Positions 32,330 through 40,841 of a stretch of 64,000 nucleotides of DNA are shown piece by piece (the stretch's first letter is position 1; each line of letters starts with the position of its first letter). The stretch lies in NCBI GenBank assembly GCA_015501075.1, contig JADNYJ010000066.1, positions 1 through 64,000 on the forward strand. The letters run 5' to 3'. Origin of the DNA: Gymnopilus junonius (Eukaryota; Basidiomycota; Agaricomycetes; Agaricales; Galerinaceae). A model generated the notes under the pieces. The model worked only from the letters and a program-made list of their open reading frames with translations. It did no database searches and had not been told where the DNA came from. The position numbers were made by a program, and so were the translations under genes.

Positions 32330-35300
32330 ATGAACAGCGCGCAAACACAAGCACAGACGCGGGCAAACGGTCCCAAATTCGCCACAGGTGCGTACAATCC
32401 CAACTTGTGATGCCAACTCGCCTTATTTGATTTGATTTTAATTTAGGTGCGGGCAATTGGCCTCGCGTGAATGGCGCCGACGGACGTACGCAGAGCTCTG
32501 ATTCGTCCACTGAGCGGGAATACAGCAACCGATCAACATCGCGCTCGGACCCCTCCTCCCATTCCCAAGCACGGGGTCCCAACGGCCGCCACCACCACAA
32601 CGCGAGCCTTTCCAACTCCAACTCCAACTCCACCAGCACGAACACGCACAACCACCGCCATTCCCCCGAGGGCCGCATATCCGCCTCGATCGAGACCTCG
32701 TCTGACCCATCGCCCCCAATCCCCTTCTGGTCTGCCAAGCGCCATCTGACTTGCGGGAACCCCACGCCTGGCCCACCCTGGTCGTCCAAGAATATCGCCT
32801 GGCGCGGCAGCGCACCTGGTAAACTCAAAACAGCCAACGCTGCTCTTGTTTTATGTCTCAACATCGATGTTGACCCGCCCGATGTCGTGAAAACCAATCC
32901 CTGCGCCGTTTTAGAATGCTGGGTCGATCCCCACACGATGCCTTCGGAAAAGGCGCTGCAGGCTATCGGGAGTAATCTGCAGCACCAATTTGAGGGGCTC
33001 AGCTTGAAGATCGCGTACAAGCCCATTCTGGACCCGTCTCTTGAGGATCTGAGGCGGTTCTGTCAACAGAGCAGGAAACAAGCAAAAGACGACGCGGTTC
33101 TATTCTATTACAATGGCCACGGTGTACCCAAACCGACAGCCAGCGGTGAACTATGGTGTTTTAACAAATCATATACCCAGTATATTCCAGTGTCCCTACA
33201 AGAAATCCAAGGCTGGCTCGGCTCACCAGGGGTATACATCTGGGACTGCTCAGCAGCAGGGAACCTGCTGACGAATTTTAACATCTACGCGGAACGGCGG
33301 GACCACGAAGTGAACACTATGCATGGCGGGTACCCAGAAGGGGTACAACCGATGATGAATTCGCTGCAGCTGGCGGCATGTGGGGCAAACGAGACGCTGC
33401 CGTCATGCCCTGAGCTCCCAGCGGACGTGTTCACATCGTGCCTGACATCGCCTATCGACATCGCGTTGCGGTATTTTATCATGAACCACCACCTACCAAA
33501 CAACACCACGCAGGACATGGTAATGCAGCTGCCTGGGGACCTGAAAGACCGCCGTACACCCCTCGGCGAGCTTAACTGGATATTCACAGCCATCACGGAC
33601 ACTATTGCATGGACTACGTTCTCTCGGGACACTTTCACCCGCCTGTACCGTTGCGATCTGCTGATCGCGTCTCTATTCCGCAATTTCCTCCTAGCAGAAA
33701 GGATAATGAAGAACCACCATTGTACACCGCACACCTACCCGCCTTTGCCATCTACTAACACCCACCCGTTATGGGCGACATGGGATCTGGCGGTGGATAC
33801 GTGCTTGAGACAGCTGCCTGATTTGTTATCCAAGTCAGCGAGTCCGACGTCGTTCAACCTGAGTGTTCCCTCCGGCTCAGGGACTACACCTGGGAGGATC
33901 GGGTCCACTGCGAGAGTGGATCCATCAACTGGGAGGGTTACTGCTGTTGCTAGTACCAGTGGCGGGACAGGCGAAAAACCCTACGTATACGTCCCCAGCC
34001 GGTTCTTCGCAGACCAACTCACAGCGTTTGAAGTGTGGATCTCAAGAGGCGGATCGGCACTGACCCGTAAAGGTCCGTTATCCCTCCCCCAAACAGGTGA
34101 AAATGGGTATCTATCTGGAGCAAGTACTTCTACTCCGACTTCGACCAACCCTAGTGGTAAATCCACCGAACCAGTTGCCCCCACTCCCGCCCCCGCCCCA
34201 GCCGTGGAGATCGACCAGCACGCGATAGACCACCACTTGGTGCCGCGTAAGCCGCCTGACCAGCTGCCTATCGTTTTACAAGTCCTCCTGTCCCAACCAC
34301 ATCGCCTGCGCGCGTTGATCCTGCTATCCCAATTTGTCGACCTAGGTCCATGGGCGGTGCATCTGGTGTTGACGATCGGTATCTTCCCATATATCTCGAA
34401 ACTGCTTCAAGCGCAAGGACAAGACCTGCGCCCCGTGCTGATCTTCATCTGGGCTAGGATTCTGGCAGTCGACGCGTCAGTACAAACGGATTTGTATAAC
34501 AACCAAGGATACAAATACTTTGCCAACATCCTCGGATTAAAGAACGAAGACAACCTGCCCAACTCGTCCGAGCATAAAGCCATGTGTTCTTTCATCCTGG
34601 CATCGATCAGTCGGGACTTTCCCTACGGCCAATAGCGTGCTGGAACGAGCGGGTGTTTGATAATTGCTACGAGCGCCTGGAGGACCATGATTTCTTGCTG
34701 AGGCAGTGGACTGCGCTGTGCATAGCACAGATGTGGGACGGGAACGACGAGATCAAGGTGTATGGCGTAGACAGGGGGACGCAGGATAAACTCATCACCA
34801 TGCTCTCAGACGACTCGGCGGAAGTGCGTGCTGCGGCACTGTACGCCCTTGGCACGTTCATGGGGGCATCAGGCTCCGCCGACGCGCTGAAGCAAGGCAG
34901 CGGGGGATCCGGCACGATGTACCAGCTGGAGGAACGCGTCCATTTCAGGATGGAGGTGGCGGTGGCAACAGGTGCGACGCTGGCGATCAAAGATGATGCG
35001 AGTCCAATGTGTAGGAAAGAGTTGCTGGTCGTGGTCAGCTGTCTCGTGAAAGAGTGGAGGGGGTATTTTGTCGTTTGTGCATGGATTTATTGGGAGGAGG
35101 ATAGGAGGTGGCGCGCGGGAGGTGCGGGTGCTGGAGGTGCTGGATCGAGTGCGGCGTATGGGTCATCTTCGGCTGCTTCGCATGGGTTGGGACATGGATC
35201 TCAAGGGCCCTATGGCCATGGAGGAGGGCACGGGCAAGGGCACGGACACTTACAAGAAGAAGACATCACCACGCAAGCCGTCTCGGAATGGCTAGACTCG

Positions 35301-37817
35301 TTCGGGGACGACGAAATGCTGCGGGAGGAGAACCGCGTTTTGCTCTCGTCCTTCTTCACCATCTACGTGCTCTTACTCGACCTCACCGTCGACCCATACG
35401 AGGAAGTCGCGACCAACGCGCAGACTATCGCAGATTATATCACTGCTTTACTCCTCGAATCGCCGTTTACGAGGTTGGAGTCGACGAGTTTACATGTCCC
35501 GCCTGCGGATGGGAAGCGCGGGTCGGGTGGATCATCAGGGTCGGGGTCACCCCAGCTTAGCACGAGGTCGAGAGTGCCTTCTCTGGCGTCGCCTTCTCTC
35601 CCACATTTGCCTTATACACACCCTCCGCCTTCGCCTTCCTATTCTGACAGACCAGGTATGGCGAGGCAGGATAGTATCGCCAGCACATTGGTTGGAAGCA
35701 CAATCAAGCGTACATCCTCATTCGCAAACGCACTCAAAAACTTTGCAGGGGGCATCGCGTTCCCGGGTGGTAGTGGCGATGGAGACGGACGCGCTTCGCC
35801 CAGTCTGGCGAGCACTCTTCTGCCTAGTCAGCTCCGACCGGCGGAGAAACACCATGATTATCGCGGGGATGTTTCTAGGCCTCCTTCACCGAATATGAAT
35901 CTGGCGAGATATACGTCGCCGTACCCCCCTTCTCCTGCGGCCTCCTCTGATGGAGGAACTCCGCAATCATACTTTGACATGCATGGAGGACCAGGTCAAG
36001 GACAGCAGAAAGCGTCCTCTCATGCCGAATTTCTTCCTTGCGATGTGATGGAGGCGCTCATGGAAGAAGACATGGAGCGGCTCCGTGCGAGGAGGAAGGC
36101 GACGCGGCGGTCGCATCAACACCAATATGGTTCACATGGGAGTGGTGGGCTGCCCAGCCCGAGCAATAGCACGTTCTCGATGGATTCGAATGGGAGCAGT
36201 GTGATTCTGGGGCTGGGCACGGGTGCGGGGATCAGGGATATGTTGCCGTTGAAGAGCACGTTTTATGACTGGTGTGCGGAGTATTTCAAAGAGCCGCAGA
36301 TGAGGGTGCGTTTGTGCTTTGGGGCCATATGTTTATCTGTTGACCTTCTTTATTTGGATTATAGCAAGCCGAGGCGGACGAACCAGGTAGTGTGCAGTAC
36401 AACTATCAAGTCTGGAGACAGCTGCGGAATGAGCAGGTCATTAAGGAGACGGATACTCAGGCCCAGATGGCAGAGACAGGCAGATGGGATCGAGCGGTGG
36501 CATCTTTCAGTGTATCGGGGTATCCTCTGACTATGGCGTTCCACTCTTACGATAAACATCTCGTCTTGGCGAATGAGCATGACATGATAAGGTACGCTCA
36601 CAATCCCTTCTTCTCTTATGCATGGCTGCTTTCTCACGATTTATCCAGCGTCTTCGACTGGCAGACCCGTAAACGGCTCAACTACTTCTGCAACGGCAAC
36701 CCCAAAGGCACCTCCATCACCGCGCTCGAAATTATCAACCAGGATGTGGGCGGGATCATCCTCACCGGCTCCGCTGATGGCATCGTTCGCTTGTACCGGA
36801 ACTACGATCCCACCCTCGAGCAGGGTCCGCTGCAGATGGTATCTGCATTCAGAGGGCTGAATGAGATGGTGCAGTCGAGACAGGGCACAGGGGTCGTGTT
36901 TGATTGGAAGCAGTCCAGTGGGTTTTTGTTGATCGGGGGCGATTCACGGGTGATCAAAGTTTGGGATGCGGGAACAGAGACGCAGGGATTGGTGTGTTTT
37001 TTTCCCCTATTTTAGCACACCCATTTACCATCTATGCATAGGACTTGGAAACCAACTCTGAAAGTCCAGTAACAGCTATTACTTCAGACTCTGGATCATC
37101 AAAAACCTTCTTGGCCAGTTTCGCAGACGGAGTGGTTAAGTTGTTTGATCGTCGATTGGAGGATGAGGATGCTATTGTCAGGACCTATGCTGACCGTGCT
37201 TCATGGGTCCAAAATGTGCGGTGGCACCCTACCCTGAGCGGACAGTTCCTATCTGCTGGGTATGTGGTACCTTTTTTTGGGTCTGTTCTTGGTGTTCATT
37301 TTTGCACTGTTTAGAATTGATGGTCAGGTCAAGTTGTTTGATTTGCGAGGCAATGATTATGCAGCCCAGACATGGAATGTACATCCATATGGCCTTTCTT
37401 CCTTTGACGTTCATCCTATTGCTAATGTGTTTGCTGCGTACGTCCAGTCTTCGTTCTTCATTCACCCTGCACCCTCTCACACTGACCATTATTACTTTCA
37501 GCACTTCTGCCATTACTCCGACGTATTGGAGATCCCAACGTATCGCTGTCCAAAACCTGAGCAAGACCATGCCTCTGACCAAATTTGACGTCACCACTGG
37601 GCTCAACATCCCTCCAGTCCGCGGCCTACCCTCTCCTTTCATCCCGAGGTCAAGCTCGCTTGTCTTCCATCCTCTACAAATGTTGTATGCTACTGGAGAA
37701 CCTGATGGCACTGGTGCGTTCACGCCTTGTCTGAAAATCCCTTTCATGTTATTGATTTTCTTTTTTCTTTTAGTGATGGTCAGGGGTTGCAGTCCTATTA
37801 CAAATATCAATCAATGA
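32330..37817 (+). CDS. KOG1: TORC1 subunit KOG1/raptor
   Basis: Eight exons: 32330-32387, 32447-36305, 36365-36591, 36649-36991, 37042-37259, 37315-37437, 37502-37713 and 37774-37817. A Ser/His-rich N-terminus is followed by the raptor N-terminal caspase-like domain ([31 protein letters not shown]). Armadillo/HEAT-type helices come next (LPIVLQVLLSQPHRLRALIL; DDSAEVRAAALYALGTFM). A long Ser-rich insert and a C-terminal WD40 propeller follow (GIILTGSADGIVRLYRNYD; GQVKLFDLRGNDYA). It recruits substrates to TOR kinase in nutrient signalling. The exons total 5084 nt, one short of a multiple of three. The missing base is at 34631-34632, where CCAATAGCG reads as a stop but CCAAATAGCG would continue into ACWNERVFDNCYERLED. 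The corrected length is 1694 residues. Confidence 0.95.
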
Positions 37818-38180: not shown

Positions 38181-40841
38181 TCATTCTGCACTATGGGTAT
38201 CCATATGCTTGTCTAGCTTTAGACTATTAACCTTGAGACCGCCTCTTGTCCAGTGCTCGTTCCCGGAAATGAAATCGCTCCGCACCATCTTTCCGCGATG
38301 CTTCACGCTGTTGTTTACTTCTACCTTCACATATACACCTTCTACTCGCCCTTCATAGAACATCGACTGCTGCTGAATCATTTGCAACAGCTCGGTGTCT
38401 GTTGGCATGCTCCCTTGATGTATGATGGGCGCTAATGGGATGGAAGTCCCTTCCAACAGTCCATGCAGGGACCTCGTGTCTGCCCACGACTGAGTACTCC
38501 GGTCGAATAAATCATAAGCGATGAAATAATCAGGGAGACGAGTATAGGGAATCGAATGGACTGCGAATACCCATTCCCCATAAAGGATATATCGTTCAGG
38601 AAAATAGGAGTCACGGCCAAGAATGTTTCTAAGCTCATCCTCATGTCGTTCAATCCACAGCCCCAGTTTTTTGAATTGTTCGTGGGTTGAAGAGTTGACG
38701 TAGTGCGAGCGGTTCTGCACCAAGATACGAGATGTGCCATCCGAGGAAGGTGATGATAATGAGATGCCCATGTTGGCTCCGTCAATCTTCTCAGTAATGA
38801 CTAAATGGCTTGAAGCAATATTAGCGAAAGACGACAGATCGGTGTGGATATCATCAGAAGTAGCTGCTCCCAGATCGATAAGATGAGGCGTCCTAGGAAA
38901 TTTCAGAATCGAAACAGGTGGCGAAAGGCGCAACACAGCTTCTTGCGAAGCGGAAAATGACCGAATTGTGATGATGGCTTTAAATCCCTCCCTCAAATTT
39001 GGCTTGACAAATACTTTCTGCATCTGCTCGACAGCATTGCGTACACGGTTACCTGGTGGCAGAGTGGGATGACCAGCTCGCATTTGTGCTCGTGATGTGC
39101 ACAACTCAGCGTCATAGTCAAACCAGATGCATACCGGAGAGGCAGTCCAATTTTGTGCGAGTTCAAGCCACGATTTCCTGTCCGATGCAGACGTATTACA
39201 TCTATCCAAAAGGACACGTTTACCCTTCAGAGGTGCCCGGCCGATCTCTGTCTCGCAAGCACCTCTACTCCGCGACTCATCCTGTGAGATGTGAACCCAT
39301 CCTGAAGGATCCCGTGCCAACAGTGATTTGGAGAACCATGATTTTCCTGAACCCGGAAGTCCAACAAGAATAAATAAATCACTACCGCCATTCAACGTGC
39401 CTTCTATTTCCATTGGCGATGGAGGAGGCTCGGAGGGAAGGTCAGGATATACTGACTGACGTTTCCAGATAGTGCTGCACCACTTCGATACGAACTGTTC
39501 CTGTTGAGAGGTTTCTATACTTCCGGGTCTCAGTGCACGAAGTGAAGAAATGGCCTCTACTGCTGTGAGTTCTGGGTGATCTTGACTGAAATTGGGTTTG
39601 TTAAAGCCGAAGGCTGCGATATAGCACGCAGCTACAGTTCCTGCCCGGCCCTTTCCACCTCCACAATGGACTAACATGGGAAGCTTGCCGTGGTCGTCGA
39701 ATAATCTGATTGTAAGATCCATTTGCTCTATTGAAGGAGGATGGTAATTTGGAACGGGTAAAAAGGTGTTGGTAATCTTTTTGCCTTGGAACCACGACGC
39801 GTGCAATGGTGTCTCTTCTGTCAGGGTTAATACGTGCCGTATTCCTAGATGGGGCGAGGCAAGCGCTGCTATGTCGTCTTCGTTCCTTGGAGTTGACATC
39901 AAGGCAAAATGGAAAGGTATAAGCCAGCGAAAGAAACGTGGCAGTTTGTAGAACTTCGTTTCCCCTGTGCCCTCGGAGGACAAAGGAATAGACAAAGCAT
40001 GCCTACTTTCCAGCATAAGTGATGGTGTTAATCTCTGGTTGCTGATGACTTCTCGTAAATAATCCGACCATGGTTTCAACAGGAAACTTGAGATGTCGTC
40101 CAAGGCCTGTACTTCGCTGATTTCGTGTCCTTGAAAGACAAGACCCCACTCAGTATCCTTAGAGCATTCGATGAGCTTCTTCATGCAATAAGATCGGATC
40201 TTATCTTCCGCAGTTCGTTCATAAGCGCAGGCATAGGACAGCATAGCAAGCTTGTACTTATACCCAGCTAGGGCTGCATCTGCTAGTCGAAGAAATCCTT
40301 TGTGAGACGTTTGGTCTGAAAGAATCAGTTGACGAGAGTGGTACTGGGCGTCGTCGTGTTGGCCAAAAGAATGAAAAGTAAAAATAGTGTGATCCAGAAA
40401 TTCCACATTGGCGCTTGGCAGCGTCTGTCCCTGTAAAAGAGAAATGATTCCTTTATCAACATCATGAATGTCATTCTCCGATAGAGTTATGTGGAAGTGT
40501 TTTGGCCGTAATCCGAACTGTTTACGGATTTGCTGCCCAGCTGCCCAGATGATGACAACCCAATATACTCCGTGATTGGGTAGGCCGCCGATTCCCGCTG
40601 AAAATAGATATCGTGTATCTGGCACTATTGAAGTCATCTTCTGTATTTGATTCTGTGTAAGGCTAGATAATTCTTCCTTTGTAGCCACCGTTACATGAAA
40701 AAGTGACTTTGAGCCAGGATGCTTGAAATGCCGTTGCTGAGTGAATACGGGGGAAGTCAAAGCCTCATCTGCTAGGTTGTCGATGTCCTGACCAACAAGG
40801 GCCAAGGCGGCTCTATATCTTTGTAAGGTGATCGATGCCAT
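38181..40841 (-). CDS. Multidomain RNA-repair enzyme: 2H phosphodiesterase - DSP phosphatase - kinase - RNA ligase
   Basis: Intronless ORF of 886 residues. Residues about 35-165 look like a 2H phosphoesterase with two HxTx motifs, HVTV (49-52) and HITL (117-120). Residues about 175-290 are helical. Residues about 300-460 are a dual-specificity-phosphatase domain (ALMSTPRN; VHCGGGKGRAGT, Cys393/Arg399), with Asn365 where DUSP23-type enzymes have the general acid Asp. Residues about 487-640 are a P-loop kinase (GLPGSGKS, 494-501; LLDRCN, 544-549). Residues about 675-870 are an RNA ligase: KIDG with nucleophile Lys685, LYGEWV, FIAYDLFD, EGVYVK (834-839), KHRGKMVR (847-854). The parts suggest opening of 2',3'-cyclic phosphates, end phosphorylation and sealing of RNA breaks. 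Trl1 has the order ligase-kinase-CPD and no phosphatase. A TATATATT lies 60 bp upstream. Domain assignment comes from motifs and is firm for ligase, kinase and phosphatase. Confidence 0.9.
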   Translation of the reverse strand: MASITLQRYRAALALVGQDIDNLADEALTSPVFTQQRHFKHPGSKSLFHVTVATKEELSSLTQNQIQKMTSIVPDTRYLFSAGIGGLPNHGVYWVVIIWAAGQQIRKQFGLRPKHFHITLSENDIHDVDKGIISLLQGQTLPSANVEFLDHTIFTFHSFGQHDDAQYHSRQLILSDQTSHKGFLRLADAALAGYKYKLAMLSYACAYERTAEDKIRSYCMKKLIECSKDTEWGLVFQGHEISEVQALDDISSFLLKPWSDYLREVISNQRLTPSLMLESRHALSIPLSSEGTGETKFYKLPRFFRWLIPFHFALMSTPRNEDDIAALASPHLGIRHVLTLTEETPLHASWFQGKKITNTFLPVPNYHPPSIEQMDLTIRLFDDHGKLPMLVHCGGGKGRAGTVAACYIAAFGFNKPNFSQDHPELTAVEAISSLRALRPGSIETSQQEQFVSKWCSTIWKRQSVYPDLPSEPPPSPMEIEGTLNGGSDLFILVGLPGSGKSWFSKSLLARDPSGWVHISQDESRSRGACETEIGRAPLKGKRVLLDRCNTSASDRKSWLELAQNWTASPVCIWFDYDAELCTSRAQMRAGHPTLPPGNRVRNAVEQMQKVFVKPNLREGFKAIITIRSFSASQEAVLRLSPPVSILKFPRTPHLIDLGAATSDDIHTDLSSFANIASSHLVITEKIDGANMGISLSSPSSDGTSRILVQNRSHYVNSSTHEQFKKLGLWIERHEDELRNILGRDSYFPERYILYGEWVFAVHSIPYTRLPDYFIAYDLFDRSTQSWADTRSLHGLLEGTSIPLAPIIHQGSMPTDTELLQMIQQQSMFYEGRVEGVYVKVEVNNSVKHRGKMVRSDFISGNEHWTRGGLKVNSLKLDKHMDTHSAE

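What the first reader, a model, noticed from the sequence alone, without database searches (positions are those of the whole stretch)
38181..40841. All-in-one RNA repair protein with 2H, DSP phosphatase, kinase and ligase modules
Seen: two HxTx motifs (49-52, 117-120), HCGGGKGR (392-399), GLPGSGKS (494-501), and ligase motifs KIDG (Lys685), EGVYVK and KHRGKMVR in one 886-residue frame. Known: fungal tRNA ligase Trl1 is ligase-kinase-CPD and has no phosphatase. Here the order is reversed and a phosphatase is inserted. Inference: a second RNA break repair or tRNA-damage response pathway, possibly against anticodon nucleases, able to process every type of broken end. I cannot say whether this fusion has been described.
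Basis: partly seen in the sequence, partly recalled or inferred. Interest (0 to 1): 0.88.

Follow-up and report, generated by a model that had tools for sequence, protein, structure and literature searches.

The report
Fungal all-in-one RNA repair enzyme
A mushroom gene codes for one protein that carries all the tools expected for trimming and rejoining a broken RNA; it belongs to an already named family, and it sits in a genome that also has the ordinary tRNA-splicing ligase.

Summary
Window 38181-40841, minus strand, is one uninterrupted 886-codon frame with all the motifs named. Pfam finds a 2H phosphoesterase, a DSP/PTP phosphatase, a polynucleotide-kinase-type P-loop domain and an RNA ligase. 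AlphaFold models with structure alignment support phosphatase, kinase and ligase strongly and the 2H fold with middling scores.

It is not a permuted Trl1: its ligase and phosphodiesterase belong to other families, and the genome separately holds Trl1, Tpt1 and an RtcB-like gene.

It is not new as a kind. Pfam already calls two of its domains "Swiss Army Knife" domains; one search found 724 relatives. Mushrooms and oomycetes have the full architecture; rotifers, ascomycetes and others have parts or most of it.

What I add, from 161 held four-module proteins: the phosphatase has Asn where DUSP23 has Asp in 156; the 2H motifs are eroded in 24, scattered over a quick tree, while phosphatase and kinase residues never vary.

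Most likely function: single-protein end healing and 5'-phosphate sealing of cleaved RNA. The natural substrate is unknown.

The parts
38181..40841 (-). complete ORF, 886 aa, 2H - TPR-like - DSP - PNK - RNA ligase
   Evidence: homologues
40464..40805 (-). 2H phosphoesterase domain (residues 13-126)
40686..40697 (-). 2H motif 1, HVTV 49-52
   Evidence: conservation
40482..40493 (-). 2H motif 2, HITL 117-120
   Evidence: conservation
40080..40406 (-). helical linker, residues 146-254, TPR-like
   Evidence: paired helices in model; no Pfam hit in the window piece itself, TPR_14 over cut-off in relatives P0162 and P0169
39489..39941 (-). DSP/PTP phosphatase domain (residues 301-451)
39645..39668 (-). 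phosphatase P-loop HCGGGKGR 392-399
   Evidence: C393 and R399 in 161 of 161 four-module proteins
39747..39749 (-). Asn365 at the place of an Asp in DUSP23
   Evidence: alignment to 2img; N in 156, D in 4, gap in 1 of 161
38919..39389 (-). 5'-OH polynucleotide-kinase-type domain (residues 485-641)
39339..39362 (-). kinase P-loop GLPGSGKS 494-501
   Evidence: GK in 161 of 161
38250..38915 (-). RNA ligase nucleotidyltransferase domain (residues 643-864)
38787..38789 (-). ligase motif I Lys685
   Evidence: its role as nucleophile follows from the family
38289..38342 (-). ligase motifs IV (EGVYVK 834-839) and V (R849-G-K851)
   Evidence: motif numbering recalled

Best explanation
It is a single-polypeptide RNA end-healing and end-sealing enzyme of the 'Swiss Army Knife' (SAK) family. 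Inferred steps: (1) the 2H module opens a 2',3'-cyclic phosphate to a 2'-monophosphate; (2) the DSP module removes the remaining terminal phosphate and leaves 2'-OH/3'-OH (its Asn365 and P-loop Lys397 suggest that it is not an ordinary protein-tyrosine phosphatase); (3) the kinase puts a phosphate on the 5'-OH; (4) the ligase adenylates on Lys685 and joins the ends. Shown: the modules, their folds by prediction, the conserved catalytic residues, and coexistence with Trl1 and Tpt1 in the genome. The likely role is repair of RNA cut by metal-independent ribonucleases, self-made or foreign. If the phosphate is removed before sealing, Tpt1 would not be needed.
For: Domain searches and structure comparisons agree. 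In 161 held four-module proteins phosphatase C393/R399, kinase GK and D521 are invariant, and the five ligase residues are kept in 160. Trl1 and Tpt1 are separate genes in the same genome. In a quick unrooted tree of 49 picked rows, oomycete and rotifer proteins fall in one set with the basidiomycete ones (SH-aLRT 97), the three ascomycete rows outside.
Confidence: 0.72

Rival explanations
1. The phosphatase module acts on the 5' end (RNA 5'-triphosphatase or diphosphatase, as in the baculovirus/Mce1/PIR1 branch, recalled), and the protein makes 5'-monophosphate ends for ligation rather than cleaning 3' ends.
For: Asn replaces the Asp of DUSP23 in 156 of 161; recalled: RNA triphosphatases of the cysteine-phosphatase superfamily do not depend on that acid.
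Against: Closest solved relative is DUSP23/VHZ; a 2H module in the same protein points to 3'-end work; 4 of 161 carry Asp.
Confidence: 0.15
2. It is simply the genome's tRNA-splicing or HAC1-type mRNA-splicing ligase (a permuted Trl1).
For: Same three activities as Trl1 expected; reverse order; Trl1 lies on the same contig about 49 kb away.
Against: Separate Trl1 and Tpt1 present; different ligase and phosphodiesterase families.
Confidence: 0.06
3. The protein serves something other than repair of toxin cuts: RNA circularisation, retroelement or small-RNA processing, or recovery from desiccation and oxidative RNA breakage.
For: PMC10809525 (passages) reports RNA ligase genes induced in a rotifer after desiccation and radiation; it is not shown here that those genes are of this family.
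Against: Healing modules for 2',3'-cyclic phosphate/5'-OH ends fit enzymatic cuts at least as well.
Confidence: 0.25

Closest known systems
Swiss Army Knife (SAK) RNA repair proteins (Pfam PF22547 2H-SAK, PF22784 PTP-SAK; Burroughs and Aravind 2016, NAR gkw722: paper not held, content recalled)
   Same: both named domains over cut-off, plus kinase and PF09414 ligase, as in mushroom and oomycete homologues
   Different: nothing of substance found; one more orthologue. PMC7824862 (passages) uses the name for a HAD phosphatase family; no HAD model matched here at E <= 1, a DSP domain stands instead
Fungal tRNA ligase Trl1
   Same: 2H phosphodiesterase, 5'-OH kinase and ATP-type RNA ligase in one chain
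   Different: reverse order, added phosphatase, PF09414 instead of PF09511 ligase, PF22547 instead of PF08302; both genes coexist
Naegleria gruberi RNA ligase
   Different: only residues 139-339 of the Naegleria chain align; a kinase precedes the ligase here
Stand-alone bacterial PF09414-type RNA ligases
   Same: 28-38% identity (best segment) in the 80 loci kept of 292
   Different: no 2H or DSP frame found nearby by my mushroom-built profiles; 3 kinase-like frames
DUSP23/VHZ
   Different: an Asp of DUSP23 (its general acid, recalled) is Asn here
Mammalian and bacterial Pnkp
   Same: kinase module
   Different: as whole proteins not matched: NCBIfam 55.1 and 36.4 bits against cut-offs 502.8 and 750

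Membership tests
Swiss Army Knife RNA repair proteins | PTP-SAK phosphatase domain | tested here: met
   195.2 bits, cut-off 27; the model alone is not specific
Swiss Army Knife RNA repair proteins | 2H-SAK phosphoesterase domain with two HxT/S motifs | tested here: met
   67.7 bits, cut-off 27; motifs at 49 and 117
Swiss Army Knife RNA repair proteins | polynucleotide kinase and RNA ligase in the same chain | tested here: met
Swiss Army Knife RNA repair proteins | healing and sealing activity | not testable with these tools
   needs purified protein
Fungal tRNA ligase Trl1 | PF09511 ligase domain | tested here: not met
   no row at E <= 1; present in the separate Trl1 gene
Fungal tRNA ligase Trl1 | PF08302 phosphodiesterase domain and LIG-KIN-CPD order | tested here: not met
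   no PF08302 row at E <= 1; order reversed
Rnl5 (Naegleria-type) RNA ligase | N-terminal OB domain (recalled) before the nucleotidyltransferase | tested here: not met
   a P-loop kinase occupies residues 485-641, directly before the ligase; only residues 139-339 of the Naegleria chain align
Rnl5 (Naegleria-type) RNA ligase | nucleotidyltransferase fold with motif I lysine | tested here: met
   K685 and fold match
Bacterial Pnkp (TIGR04075) | equivalog score of the whole protein | tested here: not met
   36.4 bits, cut-off 750
DUSP23-like protein phosphatase | CX5R and the general-acid Asp (recalled) | tested here: not met
   CX5R present, Asp replaced by Asn365

The most novel reading that the evidence does not exclude
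The phosphatase module is a 2'-phosphatase for RNA ends that works without the usual Asp, which makes this protein a complete, Tpt1-independent, scar-free repair enzyme; the gene moves between fungi, oomycetes and bdelloid rotifers as a ready-made immunity unit against RNA-cutting toxins, and its 2H module decays repeatedly because Trl1's phosphodiesterase can stand in.
Probability: 0.25. Interest if true: 0.75.

Novelty: new member of a known kind. Interest (0 to 1): 0.42.

Why it matters
The family carries in one chain the healing and sealing steps that many systems spread over several proteins, and here it coexists with Trl1, Tpt1 and an RtcB-like gene in one mushroom genome. That makes a direct question testable: why a fungus needs additional RNA ligases. 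The near-constant Asn in the phosphatase and the repeated decay of the 2H motif give two sharp biochemical predictions. The rotifer and oomycete relatives suggest lateral movement of a whole repair enzyme between eukaryotes.

Tried and rejected
Permuted Trl1: rejected. Viral relatives: the single-sequence scan of viral contigs confirmed none of 14 stretches; with the alignment 2 of 36 stretches matched, ligase part only. Bacterial operon of the same modules: the single-sequence scan of genome contigs confirmed none of 27 stretches; with the alignment 292 of 331 matched and the best 80 were kept. My five module profiles on frames of 50 aa or more from 82 loci (80 bacterial, 2 viral) gave 82 ligase hits, 0 2H, 0 linker, 0 DSP and 3 kinase hits at E <= 1e-3; those profiles were built from mushroom proteins and may miss distant domains. 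PADLOC: no hit. PHROGs: RNA ligase and polynucleotide kinase families match the respective parts. TPR in the window's own linker: no Pfam hit at E <= 1; called TPR-like only from the model and two relatives.

The count of 18 changes for 2H erosion comes from a FastTree tree, whose support values I did not look at. Some of the 24 may be gene-model errors: P0108 and P0243 have a gap at motif 1, and some keep both His but lack T/S. In one search, 247 of 292 held proteins (440 aa or longer) were aligned and 45 shorter ones dropped; the 161 with all four modules were counted. The held proteins are the top 120 of each of three searches, so the sample leans to mushrooms and oomycetes. The tree is a quick one of 49 rows that I picked by name, with no outgroup; direction of transfer is not shown.

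Rotifer link: PMC11258130 (passages) reports RNA ligase genes induced against a fungal pathogen and names PF13563 (written PF013563; a 2H-type domain as I recall); its methods also list PF09414 and PF09511 trees, so genes of the present family may or may not be among them. PMC13407396 (passages) says that evidence for dedicated RNA repair in desiccation-tolerant animals is limited.

Ten library searches listed no paper whose title or abstract start describes this fusion; I saw listings, and passages of a few papers. The founding paper is not held, so this says nothing about print as a whole.

Full report
Observation. The frame lies on the minus strand, window 40841 to 38181, 886 aa without interruption. 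The genome (58.0 Mb, 898 contigs) holds one full-length copy; two other places match only the phosphatase stretch weakly. Controls: 2H-SAK is found at one place and in 0 of 14 control genomes, PF09414 at one place and in 5 of 14. PTP-SAK is found at 7 places, 5 over the cut-off, and in 8 of 14 controls, 6 over the cut-off, so that model alone does not define the family.

Family. The search with the whole protein returned 724 proteins at E <= 1e-3; the 120 listed, the query among them, are Agaricomycetes where a name is given, otherwise unnamed records, nearly all over the full length. A search with residues 295-640 returned 174 and showed bdelloid rotifers (named ones 54-56% identity), Phytophthora infestans (46%), a fern record (42%), ascomycetes (Aureobasidium, Elsinoe, Rhizina) and Violaceomyces. 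A search with the Phytophthora protein returned 618 and showed the full four-module protein in Phytophthora, Nothophytophthora, Pythium and Lagenidium, and in Tulasnella, Ceratobasidium and Rhizoctonia; a Kwoniella protein shows no 2H-SAK match. The fern record has no ligase hit and may be contamination; I did not test that. In a quick 49-row tree the oomycetes, the rotifers and the basidiomycetes fall in one set of 37 rows with SH-aLRT 97, the three ascomycete rows and the fern row outside; the tree is unrooted and the rows were picked by me.

Name and prior knowledge. Two Pfam families matched here are named 'Swiss Army Knife'. PMC7824862 (passages) uses 'Swiss-army-knife' for a HAD phosphatase family and cites Burroughs and Aravind 2016; PMC7765460 (one passage) shows the phrase 'HAD domain in Swiss Army Knife RNA repair proteins'. 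The founding paper is not held, so what it draws for fungi is recalled, not read. I file the protein as a member of this known family.

Not Trl1. The genome has a separate Trl1: PF09511 pieces, a PF08303 match just under its cut-off and PF08302, in LIG-KIN-CPD order on contig C623 at 89.4-91.9 kb, about 49 kb from this gene, and Tpt1 on C224. The protein here has neither PF09511 nor PF08302 at E <= 1. A second PF09511 match lies on C567 and a PF08302 piece with one stop on C602.

Residue conservation. Of 161 held proteins with all four modules, C393 and R399 are kept in 161, kinase GK in 161, kinase D521 in 161, the five ligase residues (K685, E756, E834, K839, K851) in 160; residue 397 is Lys in 160 and Arg in 1; residue 365 is Asn in 156, Asp in 4, gap in 1; both 2H motifs are intact in 137, one in 14, none in 10. 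DUSP23 has Asp at the place of Asn365 (alignment); that this Asp is the general acid is recalled. On a FastTree tree of the other modules the 2H states need at least 18 changes. Reading: the 2H step is the dispensable one. The caveats are gene-model errors, a quick tree and a biased sample. A separate group of nine relatives (481-560 aa: P0161, P0162, P0164, P0167-P0169, P0171-P0173) lacks both 2H His, the kinase P-loop Lys (or that part) and the ligase, yet keeps the phosphatase Cys; eight have His and one Arg at the Asn place. Two environmental proteins carry the end of a ligase module before the phosphatase: P0197 by a Pfam match under the cut-off, P0215 by reading its sequence.

Origin of the ligase module. 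The alignment scan of bacterial and archaeal genomes matched 292 of 331 stretches; the best 80 were kept, all from records titled as bacteria, at 28-38% identity, nearly all over the ligase part alone. On those 80 and the 2 viral loci, profiles of the other modules found 0 2H, 0 linker, 0 DSP and 3 kinase frames. So the fusion looks eukaryotic and the ligase has stand-alone bacterial relatives; direction is not shown.

Mechanism. Shown: modules, predicted folds, conserved residues. Inferred: 2H opens the cyclic phosphate, probably to a 2'-phosphate (the abstracts of PMC4643303 and PMC3290555 state 2' products for CNPase; seen in the listing); DSP removes it; kinase phosphorylates the 5'-OH; ligase seals. 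The Asn in the phosphatase leaves two readings: 2'/3'-end cleaning with another proton donor, or 5'-end work, which I rank lower.

Role. Toxin defence is plausible and untested. Mushrooms make ribotoxin-like proteins such as ageritin (abstracts in the listing), and PMC11258130 (passages) proposes RNA ligases as anti-ribotoxin defence in rotifers; neither is shown to concern this gene.

Verdict. A correct and well-read observation; a named family; a useful case because this gene coexists with Trl1, Tpt1 and an RtcB-like gene and because of the Asn365 and 2H-decay patterns.

Noticed in passing
own genome C445:287857-290197 (L116) and C619:6170-8437: RtcB-like gene found in separate pieces, as if broken by introns, in two nearly equally scoring copies (perhaps two haplotypes); open frames in L116 show RtcB-like motifs (motifs recalled). 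PMC3400036 (passage) says most Basidiomycota might have lost RtcB.
   Followed up: partly
own genome C623:89414-91860 (L099): Trl1 lies about 49 kb from this gene on the same contig and strand; conserved linkage elsewhere was not tested.
   Followed up: partly
P0161, P0162, P0164, P0167-P0169, P0171-P0173: Nine 481-560-aa relatives with decayed 2H motifs and kinase P-loop, no ligase, phosphatase Cys kept, His (eight) or Arg (one) at the Asn365 place; TPR hits in the two that were scanned.
   Followed up: partly
P0197, P0215: Environmental proteins with the end of a ligase module before phosphatase and kinase, a different order from the window protein.
   Followed up: no
window 32467-37588, + strand: Raptor-type gene (Raptor_N 6.6e-64, HEAT repeats; frames after it look like WD repeats to me) next to the finding.
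   Followed up: no
P0159: Fern record (Adiantum nelumboides) with SAK phosphatase and kinase, no ligase hit; may be real or contamination.
   Followed up: no
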